Below, in pieces: positions 1-2,491 of a stretch of 64,000 bases of DNA (position 1 is the first letter of the stretch; the number at the start of each line of letters is the position of its first letter). The notes below the pieces were generated by a model. The model was not told where the DNA came from. It worked only from the letters and a program-made list of their open reading frames with translations, and ran no database searches. The translations under genes and the position numbers were made by a program. Origin of the DNA: an uncultured Clostridia bacterium (GTDB taxonomy: Bacteria > Bacillota > Clostridia > Oscillospirales > Acutalibacteraceae); NCBI GenBank assembly GCA_946187325.1, contig CAMHQC010000002.1, positions 1-64,000 of the forward strand, written 5' to 3'.

Positions 1-40
1 AATCAAGGTGTCCGGAGTTCGAATCTCCGATGGGTCACCA
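1..40 (+). tRNA. 3' part of a tRNA (window edge), probably tRNA-Lys(UUU), CCA encoded
   Basis: T-arm CGGAG-TTCGAAT-CTCCG, acceptor strand ATGGGTC, discriminator A, CCA. Upstream AATCAAGG fits the 3' side of a Lys anticodon stem; the anticodon itself is outside the window, so the isotype is inferred. Confidence 0.8.
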
Positions 41-80
41 TAGAAAGTTCAGAATTCATGCGGGTTTTGAGCTTTCTTTT
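21..80 (+). repeat. Repeat module A copy 1 (tRNA 3' end + terminator)
   Basis: CTCCGATGGGTCACCATAGAAAGTTCAGAATTCATGCGGGTTTTGAGCTTTCTT recurs at 1387-1440. Confidence 0.9.
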
Positions 81-81
81 T
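41..81 (+). terminator. intrinsic terminator after the tRNA (module A)
   Basis: AGAAAGTTCA ... TTGAGCTTTCT hairpin followed by a T-run. Confidence 0.6.
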
Positions 82-476
82 TTATTTCCTTATGTTTGAA
101 TAACCTAAAAAGTAGAATTATGGTAGAATTCCATAATTTCCACCCATTCCAAATAGACCTATTATTCCTTTTTATTAGAAACAATAAAATCTATTTCAAA
201 ATGCAGAAAAAGTCCGATTTGGGCTTTTTCTACATTTTACTTATATTGTGCTTGGAATAGTCTTTTTGTTCCACAATATCCGTAACCATGGACGGTAACA
301 TCTAAATTAAGTTCAAGATTATTTTATATGATTTTTCAAAAGCGAACTCTGATGATAGTTGGTGGGTTGCTATCTTAAAAAACAATGGTTATTCAGCACA
401 AACTTCAGGCGAAATAACTCCTTACTGGTGGAAAATAAAGTTTTCTTTTTCAGTATATAGAAAGGATTAGTTTAAT

Positions 477-926
477 ATGAAAAAAATAAAATTAATGGTA
501 TCATTTGTTATTATTATAATTTTATTATGTAGTTGTGGAATTAATAGATTTGTTTTTCAAAACTATCAATCAGGGGATATTATAAGTAATAGTATAGATG
601 GTAATATATACAAATTAAACTCTAAATTTGTCATGTTTGATGATGCGGGGGCTTTGGATGACTCTATAGTGAGAATTAATTTTCAAAATATTAAAAATTT
701 TGAAACAGCGGGAGATTACTATAATGAAGGAACAGATTATTATAAAGCTATAATAAATGAGGTATATTGCAGTGAGAGTTATATCGTTGTTACTTTAAAG
801 AATTCTGAAAAATGTGTTTTAATTGATTGTTCAAAAGATACTAAATCAGATTCAATAACAGAAGTGAAAAGCAGAAAAAGCATTCCTATTAATTATTCAA
901 AATTCACTAAGATTCAATGTGAATAA
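477..926 (+). CDS. small putative lipoprotein, function unknown
   Basis: 149-aa ORF with signal peptide and lipobox-like LLCSC. Confidence 0.7.
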   Translation: MKKIKLMVSFVIIIILLCSCGINRFVFQNYQSGDIISNSIDGNIYKLNSKFVMFDDAGALDDSIVRINFQNIKNFETAGDYYNEGTDYYKAIINEVYCSESYIVVTLKNSEKCVLIDCSKDTKSDSITEVKSRKSIPINYSKFTKIQCE

Positions 927-1113
927 AATAATAGATTGGATTGACAAATGAGATTTTTTATTCATAGTTTTTTAATTGTTTTATGATAATAGATAGTATA
1001 ACCAATAAGAATATATACCTATTATCAATGTACTAAAATGAAAAACACATTTGGTGCATTTATAAGTTAAAGTTACAATGTCATGTTATTGCAATTGTCA
1101 TAGACAGGGAAAA

Positions 1114-1324
1114 GAATCTCCGATGGGTCACCATAAAGAAAAGCAGTCCAAACGGACTGCTTTTTCTTTATACCGTCGGAGATTCGAAGCCGACCGTCGC
1201 GTCCTCGTTCGCTCTGTTCATTGGCAATTAAAGTGTTAATTGCCCTTATGAACTACGCAACTCGTCCTTTCCCCAAAAAGCTTTTTCTTTTCGGGGACCC
1301 CGTTTTTAGGGAGGAGTGTTTATG
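1114..1324 (+). repeat. Repeat module B copy 1 (tRNA 3'-end fragment + long hairpin + structured tail)
   Basis: GAATCTCCGATGGGTCACCATAAAGAAAAGCAGTCC... about 210 bp, nearly identical to 2239-2446. Confidence 0.9.
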
Positions 1325-1386
1325 AACGGTTTAGCTCCGCTACACACCGCAAGGTTCGAGATTGAAGTTTTTTAATATAAGAACTA

Positions 1387-1441
1387 CTCCGATGGGTCAC
1401 CATAGAAAGTTCAGAATTCATGCGGGTTTTGAGCTTTCTTT
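1387..1441 (+). repeat. Repeat module A copy 2
   Basis: 54-bp identity with 27-80, including 18 nt of tRNA 3' end. Confidence 0.9.
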
Positions 1442-1575
1442 ACTTTTGCTTGAATATCCAAAAAGTAGAATAATAGAAAGTTCTTTTATAAACCTATATT
1501 TTAGTGTTGATATTTATTAAGATTTATTCTATAATATAAACAAACAATAGCTATACTTTCAGGAAAGTGTCAATT

Positions 1576-2013
1576 ATGAAAATATATTTAGATAATTGCT
1601 GTTATAACCGTCCGTATGATGACCAAAGACAGCTGAGAATATCGCTTGAAACACAGGCGAAATTGAATATTCAGGATTCAATTAGAAACGGCGAGATAGA
1701 ACTTGTATCATCATTTGTACTTCTTTATGAAATATCCAGAAGCCCCAATACTACTTCAGCACGAAGCATCGAAGAATTTGTGGAAAAATACTCGGCTATA
1801 TTTGTTTCGGATAAGAATTTGGATAAAATAGAGACTCTCGCCAAAGATATACAAAGTACAGGTGTTAAGAAAATGGATTCGTGGCACGTAGCGTGCGCTA
1901 TTATAGCGGGAGCTGAGTACTTTCTGACAACAGATAAAAGGTTATTAAAATACAATACAGATTCTATCAAAATGATAAATCCAGTTGATTTCATTTCTGA
2001 AAAGGAGGAATAA
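1576..2013 (+). CDS. PIN-domain protein, putative type II toxin
   Basis: MKIYLDNCCYNRPYDDQ N-terminal acidic motif and C-terminal TTDKRLL. The ATG at 1576 is preferred over the GTG at 1567; AGGA lies upstream. Confidence 0.75.
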   Translation: MKIYLDNCCYNRPYDDQRQLRISLETQAKLNIQDSIRNGEIELVSSFVLLYEISRSPNTTSARSIEEFVEKYSAIFVSDKNLDKIETLAKDIQSTGVKKMDSWHVACAIIAGAEYFLTTDKRLLKYNTDSIKMINPVDFISEKEE

Positions 2014-2015
2014 CT

Positions 2016-2240
2016 ATGATTACAGATATAGATATTATGAATAGAGGAATCGCTTGCCTTATTCGAGAGTTGGGAATTGTTGAAGCAGAAGCCTTTATTT
2101 CGTATTTAAAGAACGATAGGTTTGACTATACCAAGTGGCGTCAGGATCAGTTTGACGATATGACGCTTGACGAGATTGGGCGCGCCGCCGCGGAGCATGC
2201 CAAAAAGCGCCCTTTTAAGGGGAACGCGGTTATACTTTAA
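2016..2240 (+). CDS. small partner protein of the PIN protein, candidate antitoxin
   Basis: Starts 2 nt after the PIN stop; 74 aa (RFDYTKWRQDQFDDMTLDEI). The stop codon abuts repeat B'. Confidence 0.6.
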   Translation: MITDIDIMNRGIACLIRELGIVEAEAFISYLKNDRFDYTKWRQDQFDDMTLDEIGRAAAEHAKKRPFKGNAVIL

Positions 2241-2446
2241 ATCTCCGATGGGTCACCATAAAGAAAAGCAGTCCAAACGGACTGCTTTTCTTTATGTCAT
2301 CGGAGATTCGAAGCCGACCGTTGCGTCCTCGTTCGCTCTGTTCATTGGCAATTAAAGTGTTAATTGCCCTTATGAACTACGCAACTCGTCCTTTCCCCAA
2401 AAAGCTTTGCTTTTCGGGGACCCCGTTTTTAGTGAGGAGCGTTTAT
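2239..2446 (+). repeat. Repeat module B copy 2
   Basis: Nearly identical to 1114-1324; arms AATCTCCGATG..ATAAAGAAAAGCAGTCC / GGACTGCTTTTCTTTAT..CATCGGAGATT form a hairpin. Confidence 0.9.
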
Positions 2447-2491
2447 CATATTATCCGGAAATCAACCTATACAGTTAAATCTCCTCTTTTC

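What the first reader, a model, noticed from the sequence alone, without database searches (positions are those of the whole stretch)
1..2446. tRNA-anchored tandem cassettes: two units with matching ends and different cargo
Seen: the tRNA 3' end (CTCCGATGGGTCACCAT) occurs four times (21-43, 1114-1134, 1387-1403, 2239-2260). It is followed alternately by module A (41-80; 1404-1440) and module B (1134-1324; 2260-2446). The layout is [att+A]-cargo1-[att+B] then [att+A]-cargo2-[att+B]. Cargo 1 is a small lipoprotein gene; cargo 2 is a PIN-domain toxin-like gene plus partner. Ends are conserved and cargo is not. Established: tRNA 3' ends are classic integrase attachment sites. Inference: this is a non-autonomous cassette array that grows at a tRNA gene and recombines in trans, since no recombinase is visible here.
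Basis: partly seen in the sequence, partly recalled or inferred. Interest (0 to 1): 0.82.

Follow-up and report, generated by a model that had tools for sequence, protein, structure and literature searches.

The report
tRNA-linked repeats with two inserted elements
Behind a lysine tRNA gene of a Ruminococcus relative sits a repeated, structured RNA-like unit that copies the tRNA's own tail, a kind known from E. coli but, as far as I could find, not described in this bacterial group, and two small gene-carrying insertions sit exactly at the copied tails.

Summary
In detail: CTCCGATGGGTCACCA, the tRNA-Lys(TTT) 3' end, occurs four times exactly (25, 1118, 1387, 2243; chance 0), with modules A and B alternating. 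The cassette reading is only half right. Module B is not a cassette end. It is a tRNA-linked repeat (TLR): terminator, inverted copy of that tRNA's T-stem/acceptor, a covarying core, then a direct copy of the tRNA 3' end. The same unit follows 11 tRNA genes in this genome, with arms matching their own tRNA. A covariance model built without the window finds it in 52 of 135 sampled genera of the family. E. coli TLRs (tyrTV, lys, arg, serX) share the anatomy and a GA-stem-GAG motif, but Rfam RtT does not match. Module A is the tRNA-proximal edge of something else: insertions E1 (AT-rich; lipoprotein, decayed HTH gene) and E2 (PIN protein plus partner). A-like DNA also follows tRNA-Pro in three relatives, once with an integrase. 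In relative G047 the same locus is tRNA-TLR-tail-CYTH gene, without E1 or E2. So two integrase-less insertions sit in the tail of the tRNA and in the tail copy of a TLR. General 'cassette array' behaviour is not supported: no other TLR array carried genes.

The parts
1..40 (+). 3' part of tRNA-Lys(TTT), cut by the contig end; its last 16 nt (25-40) are the repeated tail
   Evidence: 100% match to the complete tRNA-Lys genes of relatives; contig start at base 1
41..249 (+). module A, first copy: terminator-like hairpin plus AT-rich edge with repeated GTAGAATT words; left end of insertion E1
   Evidence: 72-79% identical to DNA directly behind tRNA-Pro(GGG) in G059, G033 and G015
41..1133 (+). 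insertion E1 (26.9% GC against 42.2% for the window), bounded by tRNA tails 25-40 and 1115-1133
   Evidence: absent from the syntenic locus of G047; GC
477..926 (+). cargo 1: small lipoprotein-like gene, 149 aa
   Evidence: the ORF listing; sub-threshold DUF6567 match only; relatives of it lie away from tRNAs in G098 and G071
1038..1070 (+). stump of an HTH-type regulator gene (MKNTFGAFIS, then stop)
   Evidence: 44 nt at 95% identity to the start of an intact helix-turn-helix-like ORF in G015:C6
1115..1133 (+). tRNA tail copy 2 (19 nt), right edge of E1 and 5' edge of TLR1
1134..1402 (+). TLR1, complete tRNA-linked repeat: terminator hairpin, inverted tRNA arm, core, closing tail
   Evidence: model R1 match 1171-1324, E 2.3e-5 in 65.6 kb, not in the training set; folds with a 9-bp closing stem between the inverted arm and the tail
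1173..1188 (+). inverted copy of the tRNA-Lys T-loop/T-stem/acceptor start in TLR1
   Evidence: inverted repeat I12 with 18-33, 94% complementary
1387..1402 (+). tRNA tail copy 3, closes TLR1 and is the left edge of E2
1403..1474 (+). module A, second copy, left end of insertion E2
   Evidence: 55 nt identical (with the tail) to 25-79, 85.6% over 97 nt
1403..2258 (+). insertion E2, bounded by tails 1387-1402 and 2240-2258
   Evidence: absent from the syntenic locus of G047
1576..2013 (+). cargo 2a: PIN-domain protein, 145 aa
   Evidence: Pfam PF01850 E 1.2e-4, just under the curated cut-off
2016..2240 (+). cargo 2b: 74-aa partner; its stop codon abuts the tail copy
   Evidence: ORF; 81% DNA match over 80 nt in G019; no Pfam family
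2240..2258 (+). tRNA tail copy 4 (19 nt)
2259..2447 (+). TLR2, 3'-truncated tRNA-linked repeat (no closing tail)
   Evidence: model R1 match 2295-2447, E 2.9e-4 in 65.6 kb; single-strand fold z = -8.9 for 2235-2460; last part 97% identical to the repeat behind tRNA-Ser(GGA) on C10
2492..3583 (-). flanking AAA/CYTH gene that marks the syntenic locus in G047
   Evidence: Pfam PF13521 and PF01928; tblastn 63% identity to G047:C26:369-1442 next to its tRNA-Lys array

Best explanation
The locus is a composite. (1) Base layer: tRNA-Lys followed by a tandem pair of tRNA-linked repeats (TLR1 complete, TLR2 cut short). Each TLR is a structured unit, probably transcribed with the tRNA. Its 5' arm is an inverted copy, and its 3' end a direct copy, of the upstream tRNA's tail, so the two can pair into a pseudo-acceptor stem with a free ...CCA end around a conserved core. 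The most likely working is that tRNA 3'-processing enzymes recognise the copied tail and cut or trim the unit as they do the tRNA, releasing a small RNA (inferred; processing at the copied tail has been proposed for E. coli TLRs). (2) Second layer: two integrase-less insertions of one family (shared left end A), E1 and E2, sit in two of these tails, the tRNA's own and the TLR1 copy. They were most likely placed by a tRNA-tail-specific recombinase acting in trans, or are remains of larger elements that lost theirs. Shown: repeat anatomy, tRNA-specific arms, covariation, syntenic locus without E1/E2, module A behind tRNA-Pro in relatives. Inferred: transcription, processing, integrase origin and order of events.
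For: Four exact tails, chance 0. TLR units at at least 13 tRNA species, 40 units extracted. Arms match their own tRNA: mean longest match 6.4 against 3.7 nt for other tRNAs, 0 of 2000 permutations as high. Core covariation: 98.9% of cells paired, 72 two-sided changes, 0 of 500 shuffles, slid controls 35-53%. The model finds both window units although they were not in training; 15 of 18 own-genome hits are at 11 tRNA genes; 93 of 300 family genomes in 52 of 135 genera match, with tail copies read directly in six other genera. E. coli TLRs have the same layout, and 11 of 11 have the GA-stem-GAG motif against 0.16 expected; TLRs are described in PMC8144298. Syntenic G047 locus: tRNA-TLR-tail-CYTH gene, no E1/E2. 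Module A at tRNA-Pro in three genomes, one with a tyrosine integrase a few genes on.
Against: No recombinase lies in or next to E1/E2; five tyrosine recombinases exist elsewhere in the genome with no link to the locus. Only the left ends of E1 and E2 are alike; their right ends share nothing beyond the tail. G047 could in principle have lost E1/E2. The window begins at a contig end of a fragmented assembly and the tRNA's 5' half is missing from it, so the array could be longer or partly misassembled. No transcription data. R1 does not match E. coli rtT and Rfam RtT does not match these units.
Confidence: 0.76

Rival explanations
1. One reading: a non-autonomous cassette array in which [tail+A]-cargo-[tail+B] is the mobile unit, with both ends conserved and cargo exchanged, growing at the tRNA by recombination in trans.
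For: A and B alternate; cargo differs; tails are exact.
Against: B occurs alone behind 11 tRNA genes of this genome and in many relatives, without A and without cargo; A occurs without B behind tRNA-Pro; the syntenic locus has B but not A or cargo.
Confidence: 0.07
2. Within the composite reading: E1 and E2 are the decayed remains of larger integrative elements (CIME-like) that once carried their own integrase, not small elements that moved as they are.
For: E1 has an HTH gene stump and a 26.9% GC content; A-like ends in G033 and G015 lead into long elements, one with a tyrosine integrase and an excisionase-like ORF.
Against: E2 is compact with two intact ORFs ending exactly at the tail; two independent deletions leaving perfect ends are needed.
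Confidence: 0.5
3. The whole arrangement arose by tandem duplication of one [tail-A-cargo-TLR] block followed by replacement of one cargo.
For: 55 identical nt in the A copies and 50 identical nt at the start of the B copies.
Against: Cargo segments share nothing beyond about 97 nt; over the shared stretch TLR2 is closer to the tRNA-Ser(GGA) repeat (97%) than TLR1 is (91%).
Confidence: 0.15
4. TLRs are not functional RNAs but selfish or attachment-site-like DNA: hairpin sites on which tRNA-tail recombinases act, with the covariation reflecting a single-stranded DNA fold.
For: Tail plus terminator plus inverted arm folds far better than shuffles as DNA (z -8.9); E2 sits in a TLR tail; an orphan tRNA-Tyr-type TLR adjoins a serine recombinase on C17.
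Against: No recombinase accompanies most arrays; units are placed 3' of tRNAs in the sense direction, and some E. coli TLRs are transcribed and processed (PMC8144298).
Confidence: 0.2

Closest known systems
E. coli tRNA-linked repeats (TLR; tyrTV rtT/RttR repeats of 178 bp, Egan and Landy 1978; Rudd 1999), as described in PMC8144298
   Same: directly behind tRNA (or rRNA) genes, tandem, about 100-180 nt, 3' end copies the upstream tRNA's tail, inverted arm able to pair with it (argV GGGAGGAT/ATCCTCCC, serX GGGGGGAT/ATCCCCCC), GA-stem-GAG motif
   Different: no detectable match with Rfam RtT or by model R1; the GA-stem-GAG motif sits at varying places in E. coli; Ruminococcus units have a longer inverted arm reaching the T-loop and an added core hairpin; tail copy 16 nt in TLR1, 18-19 nt in E. 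coli
CIMEs / integrative elements accreted at tRNA 3' ends
   Same: E1 and E2 lie between direct repeats of a tRNA 3' end, have a shared left end and no recombinase
   Different: very small (1.09 and 0.86 kb), right ends not shared, no complete partner element identified in this genome
Integron gene cassettes
   Same: short segments with small ORFs between repeated recombination-site-like sequences
   Different: no integron integrase at the locus, repeats are tRNA tails plus TLRs, arrays in relatives carry no ORFs
Inovirus-like prophage at tRNA-Lys in relative G040
   Same: uses the tRNA-Lys 3' end as attachment site (two identical tails 7.3 kb apart, tRNA-Gln duplicated too)
   Different: has its own tyrosine integrase, Rep_trans and Zot genes; no module A

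Membership tests
tRNA-linked repeats (TLR) | lies immediately downstream of a tRNA or rRNA gene | tested here: met
   TLR1/TLR2 behind tRNA-Lys; 15 of 18 own-genome hits at 11 tRNA genes, 3 orphans
tRNA-linked repeats (TLR) | 3' end identical to the upstream gene's 3' end (18-19 bp in E. coli) | tested here: met
   16 nt for TLR1, similar in 40 units; TLR2 lacks it (truncated)
tRNA-linked repeats (TLR) | tandem, one to several per locus | tested here: met
   1-3 copies at about 140-235 nt spacing
tRNA-linked repeats (TLR) | transcribed with the tRNA and processed | not testable with these tools
   no expression data
Rfam RtT (RF00391) | match to the RtT covariance model | tested here: not met
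   no RtT match for Ruminococcus units at E up to 10 while E. coli copies score 133-138 bits
CIME / integrative element at a tRNA | flanked by attL and attR direct repeats in the tRNA 3' end | tested here: met
   tails at 25-40/1115-1133 and 1387-1402/2240-2258, site without inserts in G047
CIME / integrative element at a tRNA | derived from or mobilised by a related element with a recombinase | tested here: inconclusive
   A-like end with a tyrosine integrase a few genes away in G015; none linked in the own genome
CIME / integrative element at a tRNA | excises in the presence of the integrase | not testable with these tools
   bench test needed
Integron | integron integrase next to attI with the cassette array | tested here: not met
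   no tyrosine recombinase at the locus; other TLR arrays carry no cargo; what lies upstream of the contig start is unknown

The most novel reading that the evidence does not exclude
TLRs are an unrecognised RNA element class spread over many Clostridia genera, whose arms are rewritten to match whatever tRNA they sit behind (a copied 'address' in both orientations), and whose tail copies act as spare attachment sites that take insertions in place of the tRNA.
Probability: 0.2. Interest if true: 0.85.

Novelty: new variant of a known kind. Interest (0 to 1): 0.6.

Why it matters
TLRs have been known in E. coli since 1978 without an agreed function. A large second set in Clostridia, with tRNA-specific arms and a covariation-supported core, makes their structure and role testable by comparison and gives a model (R1) to find them. 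If the tail copies really take insertions, this would be a case of a host repeat multiplying integration sites at a tRNA gene, which I found described nowhere in the papers at hand.

Tried and rejected
Integron-like cassettes: rejected, no integrase and no cargo in other arrays. attP-only mini-circles as an explanation of the 180-nt units: rejected once the same units turned up behind many tRNAs with arms matching each of them. A peptide encoded in the units (GGAGG...ATG): rejected, the frame is not kept between units. Rfam search of the window: nothing relevant. Module A in IMG/VR by a 21-nt word: none; in GTDB genomes one record, an uncultured Ruminococcus from red deer. R1 on E. coli rtT: no hit. 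Literature: 'tRNA-linked repeat' appears in two held papers, the research paper on E. coli and an editorial; subscription papers, including Rudd 1999, could not be read.

Full report
Observation. The tRNA-Lys(TTT) 3' end CTCCGATGGGTCACCA occurs four times exactly in the first 2.3 kb of the window and nowhere else in the 1.95-Mb genome. The window begins inside the tRNA because contig C2 begins there; the 5' half of the tRNA is not in the assembly. Modules A and B are as described, with corrected borders: B of the first unit runs from 1134 to the tail at 1402; the second B stops at about 2447 without a tail.

Module B is a repeat of the tRNA, not a cassette end. In relatives of the same genus the complete tRNA-Lys is followed by tandem units of about 180 nt, each ending in the same tail, with no genes inside. 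The tail follows the host: where the tRNA reads GATGGATCACCA (G033, G015) so does the copy. The same unit follows Ser(GGA), Ser(GCT), Ser(CGA), Gln, Arg(CCG), Gly(TCC), two Pro and two Met genes in the window's own genome, and Tyr, Leu, Thr and further Pro, Ser and Arg genes in relatives. Usual order in a unit: terminator hairpin, an inverted copy of the local tRNA's acceptor strand, T-stem and T-loop (..ATTCGAA), G[GC]CGA-XY-GT, a variable hairpin, A-ZW-GAG, then a less conserved stretch and the direct tail copy with CCA.

The arms belong to the local tRNA: the 14 variable arm bases match the antisense of their own tRNA by 6.4 nt on average against 3.7 for other tRNAs, and none of 2000 permutations reached the observed sum. 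The match is not perfect everywhere; some units (for example Arg(CCG) in the own genome) have poor arms. The core is a conserved fold: on 25 units 98.9% of cells pair, 72 cells change on both sides, none of 500 shuffles comes near and slid controls drop to 35-53%. The model R1 made from these units finds both window units, which it had not seen. Across 399 phylum genomes it is nearly silent outside the family, but inside the family 93 of 300 genomes in 52 of 135 genera match. In six other genera (g305, g291, g401, g315, g286, g2) units with tRNA, terminator, inverted arm and tail copy were read directly.

Closest known kind. E. coli carries tRNA-linked repeats: 22 at ten loci, with 18-19 bp at the 3' end identical to the upstream tRNA or rRNA, function unknown for most, the three in rRNA operons transcribed, processed and bound by CsrA (PMC8144298). 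I read the loci tyrTV, lysT-Q, argQ-V and serX in MG1655. They show the tail copy, an inverted arm able to pair with it (argV GGGAGGAT/ATCCTCCC, serX GGGGGGAT/ATCCCCCC) and, in 11 of 11 units, GA-stem-loop-stem-GAG with varied stems (GC/GC, AC/GT, GAC/GTC, GCC/GGC) against 0.16 expected. The motif was framed from the Ruminococcus units and the rtT unit and written down after the E. coli units had been seen, so this is support, not a blind test. Sequence models do not cross over, so common descent is possible but not shown. I therefore call these TLRs by anatomy and a new family by sequence.

Module A and the cargo. DNA 72-79% identical to module A lies directly behind tRNA-Pro(GGG) in three relatives. 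In G033 and G015 it leads into an element; the G015 one has a tyrosine integrase (PF00589) and an excisionase-like ORF within 4.5 kb. In the window A opens two segments: E1 (41-1133; 26.9% GC, a lipoprotein gene, the stump of an HTH gene) and E2 (1403-2258; PIN protein and a 74-aa partner). The G047 locus with the same AAA/CYTH and aminotransferase neighbours reads tRNA-Lys, TLR, tail, terminator, CYTH gene, with neither E1 nor E2. Taking E1 and E2 out of the window gives that arrangement. Hence E1 sits in the tail of the tRNA and E2 in the tail copy of TLR1. That an element went into a TLR tail is the new point of the locus; that an integrase did it is inference, since no recombinase is linked to the locus. 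Whether E1/E2 are small elements or remains of larger ones is open; E1 looks decayed.

Mechanism. Most likely TLRs are read through from the tRNA promoter; arm and tail copy pair to give a pseudo-acceptor stem with a CCA end, and 3'-end enzymes trim them like tRNA. The arm stands between two identical targets, the tRNA tail and its copy; the copy may keep the arm from disturbing the tRNA. This is inference and testable by 3' end mapping.

Verdict. Observation confirmed; interpretation partly supported; the TLR layer is the more general discovery. Limits: fragmented assembly, arrays prone to misassembly, no expression data, literature limited to open papers.

Noticed in passing
window 1267-1303 and 2391-2426: A palindromic repeat (CTTTCCCCAAAAAGC...TTTTCGGGGACCCC) fills the variable hairpin of TLR1/TLR2 and recurs at many scattered places in relatives of the genus: apparently a separate interspersed repeat family.
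   Followed up: partly
L129 (G040:C28:137000-146000): 7.3-kb inovirus-like prophage (tyrosine integrase, Rep_trans, Zot) in the tRNA-Lys 3' end of a relative, with a stretch including a tRNA-Gln duplicated at its far end.
   Followed up: partly
L166 4661-6800 (G000:C17): A serine recombinase ORF runs into orphan tRNA-Tyr-type TLRs with no tRNA nearby, beside DNA methyltransferase-like genes: an element may have displaced or captured a TLR array.
   Followed up: partly
L165 6700-7000 (G000:C6:37.5-37.8 kb): Two orphan Arg-type TLRs behind a 3' fragment of a tRNA-Arg, 6.3 kb from an intact tRNA-Arg(CCT) with a similar tail; possibly displaced by an insertion.
   Followed up: partly
L098 (E. coli MG1655 tyrT-tyrV spacer): Rfam RtT hits also cover the spacer between tyrT and tyrV, so the second tRNA gene itself follows a TLR.
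   Followed up: no
contig ends of G000:C2, G047:C12/C26, G098:C23, G080:C6, G083:C6, G051:C201, G037:C4: Several assemblies break at the tRNA-Lys tail, which fits repeat arrays or strain variation at this site; the excess over chance was not computed.
   Followed up: no
L127 12811-14079 (G033:C5): Group II intron-type reverse transcriptase ORF in the region behind tRNA-Pro of G033, next to type I restriction genes (by eye).
   Followed up: no
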